Program-made: the position numbers and the translations under genes | DNA from: an uncultured Lachnospiraceae bacterium | Lineage (GTDB): Bacteria; Bacillota; Clostridia; Lachnospirales; Lachnospiraceae | DNA length: 41,442 nucleotides | NCBI GenBank assembly: GCA_947566705.1 | Contig: CANOLA010000021.1 | Span: forward strand, 1-41,442 | Direction of reading: 5' to 3' | Shown: one piece after another, positions 24,250 through 41,442 of the stretch | Position numbering within the stretch: position 1 is the stretch's first letter | Layout: each line of letters opens with the position of its first letter | The notes under the pieces: generated by a model | Database searches by the model: none | Seen by the model: only the letters and a program-made list of their open reading frames with translations | What the model was told of the DNA's origin: nothing

Positions 24250-24535
24250 TAAAAAAAATCCCCTGCAATTTTCCAATTGCAAGGGACGAAAAATTCCGCG
24301 TTACCACCCTGGTTCCTGTATCATTATTTCCCTGTGGGAAATATTTTTGTCATAACAGGCTCTCATTTCTGCTTAACGTGCAGTCTCCGTTGCATTCATT
24401 GCACAGCTCCTGTGGGGAAATTCGTTTTCTAACCTGAACTTAAGGAAGCTTACAGCCAGCGACTTCCTCTCTCTGCAAGTGTATTAGAAACTACTGAACA
24501 CATTCATTGCCTTTACATATCACATTTGATTGTCA
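24250..24535 (-). promoter_or_regulatory. T-box leader of pheST, probably tRNA(Phe)-sensing
   Basis: The antiterminator carries the T-box signature AGGGTGGTAACGCGG (24310-24296 on the minus strand), which pairs with the tRNA acceptor end. It is followed by an intrinsic terminator: stem 24259-24270 with 24275-24286, one mismatch, then a T run (24251-24258). Upstream Stem I sequence includes the AGAGA element and a likely TTC (Phe) specifier in GTTCAG (24438-24436). Uncharged tRNA(Phe) would favour read-through into pheS. Between the terminator and pheS a 10-codon open frame (24166-24198) has GGGGAAG before its ATG, function unknown. Confidence 0.92.
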
Positions 24536-26397: not shown

Positions 26398-26430
26398 CCC
26401 ATGTTATTTTTCTTATGCATAACCCAAAAT

Positions 26431-26601
26431 GCCGGTTCCTGCAATTTAGACTCCTAGCGCATGCTAGGTGGGTGACCGCAGCTTACCTTCTGCCTTCCAC
26501 TGATACGAGGCGGCCTGACATCCAGTAAAATCATATAGGAATCCCGTTTAAAGTAGATGTAGGTTCTAAATAGCAGGAGTTGTCGAACATTCCAGGCTTA
26601 G
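26431..26601 (-). ncRNA. ssrS: 6S RNA (RNA polymerase regulator), Firmicute type
   Basis: A structured RNA in a 540-base gap with no protein gene. The closing stem is long: TCCTGC-T-ATTTAGA near the 5' end pairs with TCTAAAT-T-GCAGGA near the 3' end (13 pairs with one T-T mismatch), with GCCTGG/CCGGC outside. The 5' part has GGAATGTTCGACAAC, similar to the 5' arm of known 6S RNAs; the middle has TTTAAACGGGATTCC and the 3' arm has GCGGTCACCCACCTAGC, both familiar from clostridial 6S RNA. A small hairpin CCTAGC-ATGC-GCTAGG lies in the 3' arm. 6S binds sigma-70-type holoenzyme in stationary phase. The ends are approximate and no database search was run; another structured RNA remains possible. 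Confidence 0.75.
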
Positions 26602-26649: not shown

Positions 26650-26678
26650 ATTATACTTTATTATCCCATGAATTTCAA
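26650..26678 (-). promoter_or_regulatory. promoter of the 6S RNA
   Basis: TTGAAA (26678-26673), exactly 17 bases, then TATAAT (26655-26650) on the minus strand. Transcription would start near 26642, about 40 bases before the conserved 5' arm, so 5' processing is likely. Confidence 0.75.
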
Positions 26679-26721: not shown

Positions 26722-26844
26722 TTATGTAATTAGAACAAATGTCTGGTAATGGTCACCGGTATAATAAATCAGACCGTCGCTGGAATAAATAATCCGCTCT
26801 GTTCCCCTTTCCAGGGCACCCAAAGTATTAATGTCACATTCTTA
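26722..26844 (-). pseudogene. stop-separated catalytic end of a barnase-type ribonuclease
   Basis: Directly after the TAA (26844-26842) that ends the Ig-like protein, the same frame continues for 39 codons to a second TAA at 26724-26722. It reads E-C-D-I-N, then ERIIYSSDGLIYYTGDHYQTF. This matches the second half of barnase (READIN...DRILYSSDWLIYKTTDHYQTF), including the catalytic Glu, Arg and His. The stop is in frame, so one base change (TAT to TAA) explains it rather than a frameshift. This segment has no start of its own and would be made only by read-through. Confidence 0.8.
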
Positions 26845-27603
26845 ATAAATACGTTCTTTTGTATGGTCCAGTTTATTTTCAAAATCCCTGTATACATCTC
26901 CTCCAATACATTTATATTTTGCATACGGCAAAAGCGAACCTCCGCTCCATCCCAGATTCTGTGCTTCTGTTTTTGTAATAAAATTTGCCGGAAGCTTTCC
27001 GTATGTACGCAGATATTCTGCGACCTTTTCCCTGCTGGTATAAATACCGTCCTCTGTTATGGCATCGCTTTCCCCGGATAAGACATGCACGGTACAGGAA
27101 TAGCTTTTCCCGCCGCATCTGGCAGTAATAACTGCAGTCCCGACCGATTTTGCCTCAATAGTTCCATTTTCGCAAAAAGCAATCTTCTGGTTTGAAGAAA
27201 ACCATGCAGTCTTAAATGCTGCATTTTTTAATATAATAGTTTCTTTTGTTCCATAATTAATTGTCAGCTCAGTTTTACTTAAATAAGTCTTTTGTACCTT
27301 TACTTTACACTGGTAAGTCCTGCCGGCACATTTTGCAGTAATAACCGCAGTTCCGCCCTTTTTTGCCTTAACTTTCCCTTTCTGGGAAACTGTGGCGACA
27401 CTTTTGTTTTTCGATTTCCAGGATACATTCTGCTTTGCATTTTTTAGCTTTAGCTGGTATGCCTGCCCCTCTTTTAAGGTTAGGGAAGTTTTATTTAATG
27501 CGGGCTTTACAGCTGCGGAAGCATCAGGTATAAAACGAATCACAAGAATCAGTGCCAGAAAAAACATAAAGAATTTTTTTATTGAATATTTTTGAATACG
27601 CAT
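26842..27603 (-). CDS. secreted Ig-like (Big_2) protein with N-terminal half of a barnase-like RNase
   Basis: The start is ATG 27603, with AGGAGG nine bases upstream; the ATG at 27612 abuts the Shine-Dalgarno. The 253-residue product has a signal peptide (about residues 8-30, ending ASAAV) and two bacterial Ig-like domains: KPALNKTSLTLKEGQAYQLK to KVKVQ, and LSKTELTINYGTKETIILK to VHVLSG. Then comes a segment matching the front half of barnase: EKVAEYLRTYGKLPANFITK, TEAQNLGW and IGGDVYRDFENKL. It ends at TAA in place of a Tyr codon, just before the catalytic Glu, so the product as read lacks all catalytic residues. No barstar-like inhibitor gene was seen nearby. It is probably a nonsense-inactivated secreted ribonuclease, perhaps once a toxin. 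Confidence 0.8.
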   Translation of the reverse strand: MRIQKYSIKKFFMFFLALILVIRFIPDASAAVKPALNKTSLTLKEGQAYQLKLKNAKQNVSWKSKNKSVATVSQKGKVKAKKGGTAVITAKCAGRTYQCKVKVQKTYLSKTELTINYGTKETIILKNAAFKTAWFSSNQKIAFCENGTIEAKSVGTAVITARCGGKSYSCTVHVLSGESDAITEDGIYTSREKVAEYLRTYGKLPANFITKTEAQNLGWSGGSLLPYAKYKCIGGDVYRDFENKLDHTKERIY

Positions 27604-27627: not shown

Positions 27628-27660
27628 AAAAATCAGGAGAACACCTTAGTGTCCTCCTGA
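27628..27660 (-). terminator. terminator of pckA
   Basis: TCAGGAGGACAC pairs with GTGTTCTCCTGA around TAAG (one G-T pair), followed by TTTTT on the minus strand. It lies 15 bases past the pckA stop. Confidence 0.88.
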
Positions 27661-27674
27661 ATGAATAAACCGTA

Positions 27675-29393
27675 TTATGACAGAGCGTCAACTAACTTCT
27701 TAAGAGCTGCAAGAGCCTCATCCGGAAGCTTGTCATAACCTTCCTTCTTAACTGCGAAATCTTCCACAGCCTTTACACGGTTCTCCATTGCATTCTTAAG
27801 GGCAGCCTTGTACTCTGCATTGTTAAGATCCGGATTAAAGTCAGCAGACTTTCCTGACCAGTCATACATAATCTCGATATCCTCGAAATTGCCCCACTTC
27901 TCGAACTTAGCCTTTCCTTCAACGATTGTCTCTAAGATTCCGAGTGTATCGGCAGGCTTACACTTCGTTCCCATGAAATCACCGGTATTAACAATATAGC
28001 AGTCTACATTCTTCTCTTCTACCAGCTTCTTGAACTTCTCATAGTCATTTACCAGCGGATAGGTTCTGAACGGGTTTGCATACGGTACGATACGAAGCGC
28101 ATTCAGGTCTGTTCCTGCTGCCACACGCTCTGCTGTGGATGTCTTTGTTGCAAGTGTTGCACCCATAACGGAAGCAAGGGCTGCTCCCTTAAGCTTAATT
28201 ACCGGCGGAATGGTCGGATCTTTCATAATCCAGAAAATTGCATTAACCGGGGCATCAATCTTATCCACACGGTTTGGAGACCATAACTTGGACTTGATTG
28301 CCCGTCCGTTACCATTACGGATATCCTCTGTCACAAGCTGGATCTTTCCGTTCTCATCCAGGGTTGCAGAACAGTTCTGTGCTGTCAGCAGATATTCGTT
28401 ATCCGGGCATCCGGTAGGATAATCTGCTGTCTTGTCAAAGTAGGTCGGCTCAAGTGCGATGGATGCGCAGGTATCTGTATTGATAATGAACGCGTCATCA
28501 TGAAGTACCTTGATACCACCGAATGAATCATATTTTCCGCCGTGCTTTGCATGTGTAAGGGTTGACTTACCGGAGCCTGAAAGACCATATACGGAAGCAA
28601 CGAATTTCTTTCCGCCCTCCAGGGAGTATTCCTTCTGTCCGCCGTGGCAGGATGCATAACCATTACGGTTTGCAAGAGCCCATGCCATAGTAAGGGTTCC
28701 TTTCTTGTGCTCACCGAAATATCTCATACCAAGAATTGCTGCGCAGTTTTCATTGGTATCGAAGTAGCAGAGGGTAAGCGGGTCGCTTAAGCAGCTGTAA
28801 TCAACATCCGGTGCATCATGCGGTGCCCACTGCGGGTCGGAGAAAATATAGATATCCGGCTCGTTTCCGTCTGCAATCGGCTTGGAACTCTTATACATCT
28901 TTACATATTCATCAGACATATACTGGAAATTTAACATCCAGTTGTAAAGAATGTTTTCTTCTCCTTCCGGAATCAGAAGATGTGCCTTAACCATGAATTC
29001 AGGATCCAGTCCGATGAAGCACTCTGCATGGTAAAGGGTTTTCCAGCGGGTCTCATATACCGCATCCATAACCACCTTGTCCAGCTTGGCATCATCCACG
29101 CCCGGCTCACCTTTAATTCGGCGTGCTGCTGCGTAGCGTCCGGTAACTGCACCATCGTTGAATAAAAGAACCTTGGCATCCTTTTCAAGACCAAATGTCT
29201 CGCCATCCTTGACCGGCATATCGGTTACGATGGTTCCCGGTGAATTCTTTGCCAGCTCGTAAGCTTCTTTTAAGGTATTTACCTTTACTACATTGTTGCC
29301 GTAAAAAGCGGCCTCGATGATGGAACGGGTTTTGGAAAAACCAACTTTGCCAGCACCGATTTCATTCAGCGGATAATACGCTTTTGTTGCCAT
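27675..29393 (-). CDS. pckA: phosphoenolpyruvate carboxykinase (ATP type)
   Basis: Interconverts oxaloacetate + ATP and PEP + ADP + CO2; in fermenting anaerobes it often runs towards oxaloacetate. The 572-residue protein has the PCK kinase-1a P-loop VYGLSGSGKSTLTH (about 268-281), and a downstream FGGIKVLHDDAFIINTD segment with the metal-binding Asp pair (kinase-2). A conserved early part contains EPDIYIFSDPQWAPHD, and a later ALEPTYFDKTADYPTGCPDNEYLLTAQN. A late SVMGATLATKTSTAERV-type segment follows. It is somewhat longer than E. coli PckA (540) and diverged, but the ATP-type domain order is clear. AAGGAGG precedes the ATG. It is a single-gene transcript with promoter and terminator. Confidence 0.9.
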   Translation of the reverse strand: MATKAYYPLNEIGAGKVGFSKTRSIIEAAFYGNNVVKVNTLKEAYELAKNSPGTIVTDMPVKDGETFGLEKDAKVLLFNDGAVTGRYAAARRIKGEPGVDDAKLDKVVMDAVYETRWKTLYHAECFIGLDPEFMVKAHLLIPEGEENILYNWMLNFQYMSDEYVKMYKSSKPIADGNEPDIYIFSDPQWAPHDAPDVDYSCLSDPLTLCYFDTNENCAAILGMRYFGEHKKGTLTMAWALANRNGYASCHGGQKEYSLEGGKKFVASVYGLSGSGKSTLTHAKHGGKYDSFGGIKVLHDDAFIINTDTCASIALEPTYFDKTADYPTGCPDNEYLLTAQNCSATLDENGKIQLVTEDIRNGNGRAIKSKLWSPNRVDKIDAPVNAIFWIMKDPTIPPVIKLKGAALASVMGATLATKTSTAERVAAGTDLNALRIVPYANPFRTYPLVNDYEKFKKLVEEKNVDCYIVNTGDFMGTKCKPADTLGILETIVEGKAKFEKWGNFEDIEIMYDWSGKSADFNPDLNNAEYKAALKNAMENRVKAVEDFAVKKEGYDKLPDEALAALKKLVDALS

Positions 29394-38226: not shown

Positions 38227-39271
38227 TTATGCTATTATTACCAGCTTTTGATAATTCATACCGGATTGTATTTTAAATTTCTTTTTTCCGCTGATGGCTT
38301 TTACTTTTACCTTTTTGTCCAGCCCGGCTTTCTGGAACAGTTTTTTGTATTTTTTCAGGCAGCTTTTCGGGACTTTTATTACGGTGTTTTTGTTGAGTCC
38401 TAAGAATGCTCCTTTATAAATGTGGTTTAGGTTTTTGGACTTAATGGTAATTACTTTTAATTTTTTACAGTCCTGAAAAATTCCATAGCGGCTGTATGTA
38501 TTTTTTTCTATATAAAAGTTTGTCACATTTTCCGGAATTTCAACGGATGTAATTCCAGCCCCCATAAAGGCAGCTGAATCTATTTTTTTCACCGAAACTG
38601 GTATTTTAACTTTCCGTAGTCTTTTACAATTACGGAACAGCCCCTCTTCAATTGTCTTCAATTTATCAGGTAAGTAAATATATTCAAGATTCTTGCATTC
38701 GGCAAAAGCATATACTCCTATCTTAGTTACTTTATCAGGAATTTCAATTTTCTTTAAGTTCCAACATCCGCCAAACACACATCTGCCTATGGTGACTACT
38801 TTTTTGGGAATACAAATTTCTGGTAAATTACGGCAGGCAGAAAACGCATAATTTCCAATTTAAAGTAATATTATCTGACATGATAACTGTTTCAAGGCTC
38901 CAACAGTTTTGAAATACGCCCTCTCCTATATAAGTTACCGTGTCAGGCAGCTTAATCGTTTTTAGTTTATAAAAATCCATAAACTCCTCCCCCGGCAGAC
39001 CAGTAATTCCATTTTCAATCACAAGGTGTTCAGCTTCCTCACTCCAGCACCACCACTCCGGTTCCGGGCTGTGACCGTCCAGTTCAAAATACTTCAGGTC
39101 TTTTGTTCCAGAAAAAGTCAGTGTTCTGTTTTTTCTTTCGTACTTCCATGTATTTCCATTTGCATCCTGTCCGGATAATGTTTTTCCTTTAGCAGCCAGA
39201 GTATTTCCATTCAGAAAAAACATACTTACAGCCAGAAACAGCAGGGCTGCCTTTTTTATCATCCTTTTCAT
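38227..39271 (-). pseudogene. BspA-type leucine-rich repeat surface protein, frameshifted
   Basis: A tandem copy of the gene at 39315-40427. It starts at ATG 39271 (MKRMIKKAALLF, RBS GGGGAGGC) with a signal peptide. It reads correctly as far as ETVIMSDNIT and then runs out of frame to a stop (38828). Shifting frame by one base at about 38860 restores the paralogue-like sequence IGNYAFSACRNLPEICIPKK, then VTIGRCVFGGCWNLKKIEIP, and the open frame continues to 38227. A single extra base (or a two-base loss) explains the break. The repaired product would be about 350 residues with a signal peptide and LRR_5 repeats (23-residue type, IPxxVTxIGxxAF). No second fault was seen. Confidence 0.85.
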
Positions 39272-39314
39272 TCTGCCTCCCCGTATTATTTCCATCCCTT
39301 CAAAATCGTTTCAA

Positions 39315-40427
39315 TTATTTATTGTCAGCATTACCAGCCACTTTACATATCCCATATTTATGCCCTGATATCGTGACTCGGGTTTTTGTTACCGGACAGT
39401 CTTTTACTATAATGGGACTGAATTTCTTTTTGCCGCTGATGGCTTTCACCTTTACCTTTTTGTCCAGTCCCGCTTTATGGAACATCTTTTTGTATTTTTT
39501 CAGGCAGCTTTTCGGGACTTTTATTACGGTGTTTTTGCTGAGTCCTGAGAATGCTCCTTTATAAATGTAATTTAGGTTTTTGGACTTAATGGTAATTACC
39601 TTTAAATTTTTACATTTTTGAAATATTCCATTAGTGTCATATTCATACATTCCTTTTCCCTTATAAAAACTCATCACATTTTCTGGTATTTCCATACTTG
39701 TAATTCCAGAACCTAAAAAAGCAGCTATTTGAATTTTTTTCACTGAAGTTGGCAGTATCACTTTCAAAAGTTTTTTACAATTGCGAAACAATCCCTCTTC
39801 AATTACTGTTAAATCTTTCGGTAACTTTATGGCTTCAAGATTCTCACATTCAGCAAAAGCTAACGCTCCTATTTTAGTCACTTTTTCTGGTATTTCTAAT
39901 TTTTTTATACTCTTACATCCACAAAATGCTCCCTCACCAATAGTAGTCACTTTTTCCGGTATCGAGATATCTTGTAAATTATGGCAACTAATAAATGCAT
40001 TATTACCTATAGAAATAATGTTTTTTGGCATATTAATTGTTTTCAATTCTCTGCAATTATCGAAAACGCAATGCCCAATATATGTTACAGTATCCGGCAG
40101 TTCAACCGTTTTCAACTTATAGAAATCAGAAAATTCCTCCCCTGGCAGACCAGTAATTCCATTTTCAATTACAAGATGTTCAGCTTCATTATTCCAGCAC
40201 CACCACCCGGGTTCCGGGCTGTGCCCGTCAAGCTCAAATTCTTCTAAATCCGTTGTTCCTGAAAAGGTCAGCGTCTTTGTTTCCCTGTCATAAACCCATT
40301 TATTTCCGTTGTAATCCTCTCCGGATAATGGTTTTTGTTTTGCCTGCGGCGTATTAATATTTAAAAAAAACAAACTGCCAAATAACAGAAAAACCATGAT
40401 TATCTTTCTGCAAATCCGCTCTTTCAA
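39315..40427 (-). CDS. secreted BspA-type leucine-rich repeat protein
   Basis: A surface-type protein, probably an adhesin or scaffold. The preferred start is TTG 40427 (KERICRKIIMVFLLFGSLFF), with GGGGTGAT upstream and aligned to the start of its tandem copy; ATG 40451 is an alternative. A signal peptide is followed by a domain seen also in the copy (TLTFSGTTDLEEFELDGHSP and WWCWNNEAEHLVIENG), then about eight LRR_5 units (LPDTVTYIGHCVFDNCRELK, IPEKVTTIGEGAFCGCKSIK, IPEKVTKIGALAFAECENLE and so on). The C-terminal KTRVTISGHKYGIC segment is not shared with the copy. It follows the subtilase gene closely, suggesting co-transcription of a secreted cluster. Confidence 0.85.
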   Translation of the reverse strand: MKERICRKIIMVFLLFGSLFFLNINTPQAKQKPLSGEDYNGNKWVYDRETKTLTFSGTTDLEEFELDGHSPEPGWWCWNNEAEHLVIENGITGLPGEEFSDFYKLKTVELPDTVTYIGHCVFDNCRELKTINMPKNIISIGNNAFISCHNLQDISIPEKVTTIGEGAFCGCKSIKKLEIPEKVTKIGALAFAECENLEAIKLPKDLTVIEEGLFRNCKKLLKVILPTSVKKIQIAAFLGSGITSMEIPENVMSFYKGKGMYEYDTNGIFQKCKNLKVITIKSKNLNYIYKGAFSGLSKNTVIKVPKSCLKKYKKMFHKAGLDKKVKVKAISGKKKFSPIIVKDCPVTKTRVTISGHKYGICKVAGNADNK

Positions 40428-40441
40428 TTTATCACCCCATA

Positions 40442-41442
40442 CTATTTCCATTGCTCAACCACCTTTTTTACTTTTGCATTACTGGCATTATTTACGATTT
40501 CCTTAAGCTTTTTATTATCACCAGGTTTTAAATAGTCAGAGAGTTTTATTATGCCATATGAATTAATTACATATTTCTTCTTTTGTGCATCTCCTTTATA
40601 CTTTTTTGCTGTGGAACATTTCTTGTAATACTTGATTTCCGTAAAAACATCCTTTGTGCCTGCTTTCTGTTTATTTATCGAAGTAGCAAATATTTTATTG
40701 CACACACGCTTTGCACTGGTCCATCTGTTTTTAATACAGCCCGGATTATCGACAAAATCCGTTTCAGGATATGGCTTGCCGGTTTTTGGATCTTTGGGAC
40801 CATGTGTAAGACGTTTCCAGCTGGAACATAAAGTGTTCAGGCTCTTTTTCTCCAAATTCTTTCTTTGGTCTTCCATTCCTTTTATACCTGCCGTGCTGTG
40901 TGCAAAAATATCAGCAACTGTATGAAGTGACATTCCGTACAGAAAAAGCCCCTTTTCTTCCTGCCTGGTACATTTGTATTCATGAAATCCCCCATACTTT
41001 TCCGTTGTATTAACCAGCTGTTTTAACAGTTTCTTTTCATCCTTGTCCGCACAGTCTTTTTCTGCAATCCACTCCCCGTCCTTATACATTTTTGTCGCAG
41101 CCTTTGATATAAATCGGTATGCTTTCACATAATTATATTCGGAGTAACCGTGAAAGGCGGGATTATCATGCCCGTTTACTTTTGATTTCTTTTTATCCGG
41201 CCAGAGAGTTCCTTCCCGTATCATTTCCATTTTCTTTGATGTAATTTCATGCTGGTTCTTTTTCCAGTATCCTTCCACCGTCTCCTCATCCAGGCACAGC
41301 AGCGCATCCATATTACTGTCTATCTCATACTCTTCCACAGCCGTCTCCGGCGCATGGTACTGCTGCCACAGCACTGCCGCAAGCGCAGTCACCTGCGGCG
41401 CCGCCATGCTCGAACCGGAGAAGCTCGTCAGCATCCCGAACG
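40442..41442 (-). CDS. C-terminal part of a subtilisin-like protease fused to a His/Asp-rich domain (partial)
   Basis: The gene runs off the right end of the window. The visible 333 or so residues begin at F-G-M-L-T-S-F-S-G-S-S-M-A-A-P, the catalytic-Ser motif (GTSMAAP-like) of S8 subtilases. About 50 residues later a different domain starts: AFHGYSEYNYVKAYRFISKAAT (about residues 95-116), and LFLYGMSLHTVADIFAHSTAG (about 165-185). HxxxDxxxH (H-T-V-A-D-I-F-A-H) resembles the metal-binding helix of zinc-dependent phospholipase C-like proteins. The C-terminal tail is Lys-rich. The stop is 15 bases before the LRR-protein start. Confidence 0.75.
   Translation of the reverse strand, partial: FGMLTSFSGSSMAAPQVTALAAVLWQQYHAPETAVEEYEIDSNMDALLCLDEETVEGYWKKNQHEITSKKMEMIREGTLWPDKKKSKVNGHDNPAFHGYSEYNYVKAYRFISKAATKMYKDGEWIAEKDCADKDEKKLLKQLVNTTEKYGGFHEYKCTRQEEKGLFLYGMSLHTVADIFAHSTAGIKGMEDQRKNLEKKSLNTLCSSWKRLTHGPKDPKTGKPYPETDFVDNPGCIKNRWTSAKRVCNKIFATSINKQKAGTKDVFTEIKYYKKCSTAKKYKGDAQKKKYVINSYGIIKLSDYLKPGDNKKLKEIVNNASNAKVKKVVEQWK

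What the first reader, a model, noticed from the sequence alone, without database searches (positions are those of the whole stretch)
26722..27603. Secreted barnase-type ribonuclease stopped one codon before its catalytic Glu
Seen in sequence: after a signal peptide and two Ig-like domains the frame matches barnase up to the middle of the fold, then TAA, then in the same frame E-C-D-I-N and YSSDGLIYYTGDHYQTF, which carry the rest of barnase including the catalytic Glu, Arg and His. The stop replaces a position where Tyr (TAT) is likely, so a one-base change explains it. The domain pairing (Big_2 plus barnase fold) and the absence of a barstar-like gene nearby fit a surface-exposed or exported toxin. 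Either it has recently been silenced, or read-through yields a small amount of active enzyme.
Basis: partly seen in the sequence, partly recalled or inferred. Interest (0 to 1): 0.75.

Follow-up and report, generated by a model that had tools for sequence, protein, structure and literature searches.

The report
Silenced secreted ribonuclease gene, immunity partner gone
A gene for an exported RNA-cutting enzyme carries a stop signal just before its active site and lacks the neighbouring protective gene that its close relatives have, so it is most likely a recently dead toxin-type gene: a tidy but ordinary case of gene decay.

Summary
On the minus strand, 26842-27603 encodes a signal peptide, Ig-like (Big_2) domains and the N-terminal part of a barnase-family RNase, ending in TAA at 26842-26844. 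The next 39 in-frame codons are the rest of barnase; their first residue aligns with barnase residue 73, the catalytic Glu. Scored across the stop: 65 bits, E 2.1e-17.

The four nearest Big_2-barnases each have a barstar gene directly downstream, as do 81 of 93 RNase genes in a family sample. The window has none, and none was found in its 84%-complete draft genome. Sister genomes have PEPCK-terminator-6S RNA without an RNase; in the window the 6S flank begins at the RNase's last codons, leaving no room for barstar.

Best reading: a barnase-barstar module that lost its immunity gene and was silenced recently. Five invariant active-site residues and an open frame persist. An assembly error or rare variant cannot be excluded; read-through has no support. 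Against a tight link between the two losses: one other intact RNase lacks any detected barstar, and one broken RNase keeps its barstar. Ordinary pseudogene of a known kind.

The parts
26845..27603 (-). Truncated coding frame, 253 codons before the stop: signal peptide, Ig-like domains, N-terminal part of barnase
   Evidence: start chosen by GGAGG spacing (by eye)
27511..27603 (-). Signal peptide (about 31 residues)
   Evidence: by eye translation; no predictor run
27334..27498 (-). Big_2 Ig-like domain, best stretch
   Evidence: PF02368 44.3 bits over the whole protein, 2 stretches
27064..27291 (-). Second Ig-like domain
   Evidence: (2 stretches) and alignment with relatives, (49-59% identity over 76 residues)
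26845..27027 (-). N-terminal part of the barnase domain, holding the residue aligned with barnase Lys27
26842..26844 (-). In-frame TAA, one codon before the residue aligned with barnase Glu73
26725..26841 (-). 39 open codons after the stop: C-terminal part of barnase with the residues aligned with Glu73, Arg83, Arg87, His102; last three codons look derived from the 6S flank
26722..26724 (-). Final TAA of the frame; lies within sequence shared with the 6S flank of sister genomes
27633..27660 (-). Terminator of the upstream PEPCK gene (12-pair stem, T run)
   Evidence: z -5.29
27675..29393 (-). PEPCK gene, upstream neighbour, conserved in sisters
26650..26678 (-). Promoter-like site of 6S RNA (11 of 12 matches)
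   Evidence: aligned flank in sisters
26417..26601 (-). 6S RNA, downstream neighbour
   Evidence: RF00013, 72 bits

Best explanation
It is the relic of a secreted barnase-type RNase that once belonged to a toxin-immunity pair (RNase gene followed by barstar). Shown: the RNase frame is cut by a stop between the N- and C-terminal parts of the fold, the barstar gene is absent beside it and undetected in the draft genome, and the gene sits between a PEPCK terminator and the 6S promoter where sister genomes have no RNase. Inferred: the module was inserted there, barstar and the last codons of the RNase were lost at the 6S-side junction, and the nonsense change silenced the enzyme recently. Inferred product: at most a secreted Ig-like protein with a partial, inactive RNase fold. 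Which loss came first is not known; loss of the enzyme would remove the need for barstar, and loss of barstar would favour loss of the enzyme.
For: The stop removes four of the five residues that are invariant in 89 of 89 secreted relatives and align with barnase Lys27, Glu73, Arg83, Arg87, His102; Glu73 and His102 are named as catalytic and the other three as vital for RNA binding and activity in PMC9321962 (one passage). Barstar directly downstream in 81 of 93 family RNase genes, gap at most 314 nt, median 34, and in all 3 genus members with an intact RNase, G017, G030, G032. The tree places the window beside G032 (92/92) in a set of five Big_2-barnases (100/92), the other four of which have barstar next door. 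No barstar in the own genome at E<=10 by profile; best single-sequence match E 0.52, 26% identity, inside a 1280-aa frame. Sister PEPCK loci: none of 29 matches the RNase part, 18 match the 6S side; 17 of 19 scanned have 6S; in 14 of those 17 the interval is 87-270 nt. Flank similarity resumes at 26725 in G031, G032, G025. Recency: only one stop, no frameshift, C-part 67-72% identical to four relatives with pN 0.18-0.21 against pS 0.79-0.87. Expressed barnase is toxic to its host without barstar (PMC8403359, passages).
Against: Barstar pairing is not universal: of 93 family RNases 1 has it upstream, 6 elsewhere in the genome, 5 nowhere detected, including G294, an apparently intact secreted RNase; 9 of 80 named loci have none in reach. 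G342 has an apparently frame-broken RNase that still has barstar, so breakage and barstar loss are not tightly linked. The draft genome is 84% complete, so a distant barstar could be missing. Five of the window's seven departures from conserved columns are at positions where the intact G032 copy departs too, so no extra decay is visible beyond the stop and the C-terminus.
Confidence: 0.72

Rival explanations
1. Assembly or sequencing error, or a minority variant in the sampled population: the gene is intact in most cells.
For: Draft genome of 160 contigs, 84.24% complete, probably assembled from a metagenome. Among 93 family RNase hits only this one and G173 (another class) carry a stop inside the match, and 0 of 80 named loci do. 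The post-stop part looks fully functional. A second gene of the contig, the LRR-type copy at 38227-39295, is frameshifted, which could reflect assembly quality.
Against: The missing barstar and altered C-terminus are independent signs of a defunct module. The long conserved genes of the contig (PheT 806 aa, PEPCK 572 aa and others) are uninterrupted in the ORF list.
Confidence: 0.17
2. The truncated protein (signal peptide, Ig-like domains, partial RNase fold) is kept as a secreted binding protein without RNase activity.
For: The Ig-like part is open and shows ordinary similarity to relatives (47-59% identity for the pairs with both domains).
Against: The unused C-part is as conserved as in working genes, so too little time has passed to show a new role; no promoter match lies between the PEPCK terminator and the start, though the same scan finds none upstream of the intact L004 gene either.
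Confidence: 0.07
3. Stop-codon read-through yields a small dose of active RNase, a way to live with an RNase without barstar.
For: Post-stop frame open and conserved with all the invariant residues.
Against: TAA codon; no unusual RNA fold around the stop (z -0.40, -0.37); synonymous sites after the stop saturated, so no conserved recoding signal; none of the relatives surveyed has a stop at this place.
Confidence: 0.04

Closest known systems
Simple barnase-barstar gene pairs (toxin-then-immunity order, PMC3482391)
   Same: PF00545 RNase with export-type N-terminus; relatives in the genus and family have barstar directly downstream; passage in PMC3482391 calls such pairs widely distributed
   Different: Here barstar is missing and the RNase is interrupted
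Barnase of Bacillus amyloliquefaciens
   Same: Both pieces align to barnase 7-65 and 73-109
   Different: Ig-like domains in front; stop inside the domain; Ser57 and Arg59 of barnase are not kept, nor are they in the family consensus
Polymorphic-toxin barnase domains (G143, G233, G173 type)
   Same: PF00545 C-terminal part
   Different: Their N-part differs (20 of 40 conserved columns of the secreted set depart) and they have no barstar detected; G173 carries its own TAG

Membership tests
Barnase-type RNase (PF00545) | Profile match over the domain | tested here: met
   65 bits across the stop; pieces 13.2 and 37.9 bits
Barnase-type RNase (PF00545) | Active-site residues Lys27, Glu73, Arg83, Arg87, His102 encoded | tested here: met
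   All five present in the DNA frame; four lie after the stop
Barnase-type RNase (PF00545) | One uninterrupted reading frame giving a complete enzyme | tested here: not met
   TAA at 26842-26844
Barnase-type RNase (PF00545) | RNase activity | not testable with these tools
   needs an assay
Barnase-barstar toxin-immunity pair | Barstar gene next to the RNase | tested here: not met
   No ORF room between RNase end and 6S promoter; none in genome
Barnase-barstar toxin-immunity pair | Close relatives are such pairs | tested here: met
   L004, L005, L120, L127
Programmed stop-codon read-through | Stop conserved at the same place in relatives | tested here: not met
Programmed stop-codon read-through | Product longer than the stop detected | not testable with these tools
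   needs proteomics or reporter

The most novel reading that the evidence does not exclude
The stop is a kept dose limiter: in a lineage that has lost barstar, rare read-through of the TAA supplies just enough secreted RNase to be useful without harming the producer.
Probability: 0.04. Interest if true: 0.7.

Novelty: new member of a known kind. Interest (0 to 1): 0.2.

Why it matters
It is a clean snapshot of a toxin-immunity module dying at a defined chromosomal place: partner gene gone, enzyme stopped before its active site, rest of the frame still fresh. If several strains could be compared, the order of the two losses could be read off. The survey also shows how common secreted barnase-barstar pairs are in the sampled family: 92 of 397 genomes have the RNase at E<=1e-5. 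For the single locus itself the lesson is ordinary gene decay.

Tried and rejected
Second RNase copy: the weak hit on contig C81 (12.3 bits) lies in what reads by eye as a PdxS gene; rejected. Extra decay upstream of the stop: the window departs at 7 of 40 conserved columns, against 0-6 in 89 relatives, but five of these positions also depart in the intact G032 copy; not used as evidence of decay. A statistical link between stop and barstar loss: looked promising because both stop-bearing hits, G000 and G173, are among the five of 93 genomes-with-RNase hits without barstar, but G173 is of the polymorphic-toxin class and G342 is broken with barstar present, so I dropped it. Promoter absence: weak, because the intact L004 gene also shows no promoter match upstream, while L127 does. 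Named relatives by the window's own N-part: no relative found. Literature: seven searches of the open-access library listed no paper on a broken barnase gene of this group; listings only, apart from passages of PMC3482391, PMC9321962 and PMC8403359.

Full report
Observation. The minus-strand frame 27603-26842 and its in-frame continuation to 26722 are as described. Searched apart, the two pieces are complementary parts of PF00545: profile 3-52 (13.2 bits, below cut-off on its own) and 56-97 (37.9 bits, E 2.6e-9). Both align to barnase in the solved-structure set, residues 7-65 and 73-109. The first codon after the stop encodes the residue aligned with Glu73. The tool's whole-domain score across the stop is 65 bits, E 2.1e-17. 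NCBIfam has no model for either piece at E<=0.01.

Genome. The window is the whole of contig C21 of a draft genome (3.4 Mb, 160 contigs, 84.24% complete, 1.6% contamination). It probably belongs to Lachnospiraceae: five family-sample loci are identical to named records, and three of these five are titled Lachnospiraceae, one Clostridiaceae, one Bacteroides.

Active site. In 89 secreted relatives aligned with the window (96 extracted domains, less the window, five of the polymorphic-toxin type and the broken G342), the residues matching barnase Lys27, Glu73, Arg83, Arg87 and His102 are invariant, 89 of 89 each. The window's DNA frame keeps all five, four of them after the stop. PMC9321962 (one passage) names Glu73 and His102 as catalytic and Lys27, Ser57, Arg59, Arg83, Arg87 as vital; Ser57 and Arg59 are not kept in the window, nor in the family consensus.

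Relatives are pairs. In the genus 5 of 62 genomes have a PF00545 match over the cut-off: the window, a C-terminal fragment in G004, and three intact genes in G017, G030 and G032. Each of these three has a barstar ORF directly downstream, confirmed by Pfam at 54.5-77 bits. In a family sample 92 of 397 genomes have the RNase, 93 matches. A barstar match lies directly downstream on the same strand in 81 of 93, within 314 nt, median 34; one has it upstream, six elsewhere in the genome, five nowhere: G000, G294, G143, G233, G173 (barstar rows down to 20.8 bits). Five of the 80 are the same DNA as family-sample loci. PMC3482391 describes simple barnase-barstar pairs as widely distributed with toxin-immunity gene order (passages).

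Stops in relatives. Of the 93 matches only G000 (TAA) and G173 (TAG) have a stop inside. G173 belongs to the polymorphic-toxin class. G342 is partial and its upstream part is out of frame, yet its barstar is present. None of the 80 named matches has an internal stop.

Barstar in this genome. Profile search: no match at E<=10. The barstar of the closest relative: best E 0.52, 26% identity inside a 1280-aa frame, which is chance level. The missing 16% of the genome is unknown.

Place in the chromosome. The gene lies between the PEPCK terminator (27633-27660; fold z -5.29) and the promoter-like site of 6S RNA (26650-26678; 6S RNA 26417-26601). PEPCK was found in 28 of 62 genus genomes, the window's included. 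Of the 29 PEPCK loci other than the window's own, 18 match the 6S side of the query and none the RNase part. Of 19 sister loci given to Rfam, 17 have 6S RNA near PEPCK. In 14 of those 17 the interval is 87-270 nt; in three it is 920-977 nt and holds another ORF of 205-227 aa. G032 has an empty interval here although it carries an RNase-barstar pair on another contig. In G031, G032 and G025 similarity to the window's 6S flank starts at 26725, that is at the last codon of the RNase frame. The last three codons and the final stop of the frame therefore probably come from the flank, and barstar has no room.

Age. The window RNase is 55-64% identical to four relatives before the stop and 67-72% after it; after the stop pN is 0.18-0.21 and pS 0.79-0.87. 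No further stop or frameshift is present. Five of seven departures at conserved columns occur at positions where the intact G032 copy departs as well; the two at the C-terminus do not. The silencing is thus recent. The tree puts the window with G032 (92/92) within a set of four (99/89) and of five (100/92) Big_2-barnases; it rests on few columns and its bootstrap had not settled. PEPCK of G032 is 96% identical to the window's, far more than the RNases, so the RNase was either acquired apart or evolves fast.

Mechanism. A stop before Glu73 leaves a protein without Glu73, Arg83, Arg87 and His102, so no activity is expected (inference from the family). PMC8403359 (passages) states that barnase expressed without its inhibitor is toxic to the host; a lineage without barstar is therefore expected to tolerate only a silent or very weakly expressed copy. 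G294, apparently intact and without detected barstar, shows this is not absolute. Read-through has no positive evidence: TAA, no unusual fold, no conserved recoding signal.

Verdict. Relic of a known toxin-immunity pair, probability 0.72; error or minority variant 0.17. The reading of the missing barstar is corrected: it is a lost partner, not a sign of an exported toxin that needs none.

Noticed in passing
window 38227-39295 (-): A tandem copy of the secreted leucine-rich-repeat-like protein at 39315-40451 is split by a frameshift (67% identity to the intact copy in two frames): a second broken secreted-type gene on the contig.
   Followed up: partly
PEPCK-6S interval; L043, L047, L049: In 3 of 17 sister intervals another ORF of 205-227 aa sits between PEPCK and 6S RNA; the place seems to accept inserts repeatedly.
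   Followed up: partly
L089 (G342): RNase gene whose N-terminal part is out of frame although barstar follows: another apparently broken barnase.
   Followed up: no
L081 (G173), L079 (G143), L080 (G233): Polymorphic-toxin type barnase domains without detected barstar; G173 carries a TAG inside the match.
   Followed up: no
L149/L006 (G004): A 55-aa C-terminal barnase fragment as a free-standing ORF.
   Followed up: no
window 24279-24516 (-): T-box leader upstream of pheS-pheT (gene names by eye).
   Followed up: no
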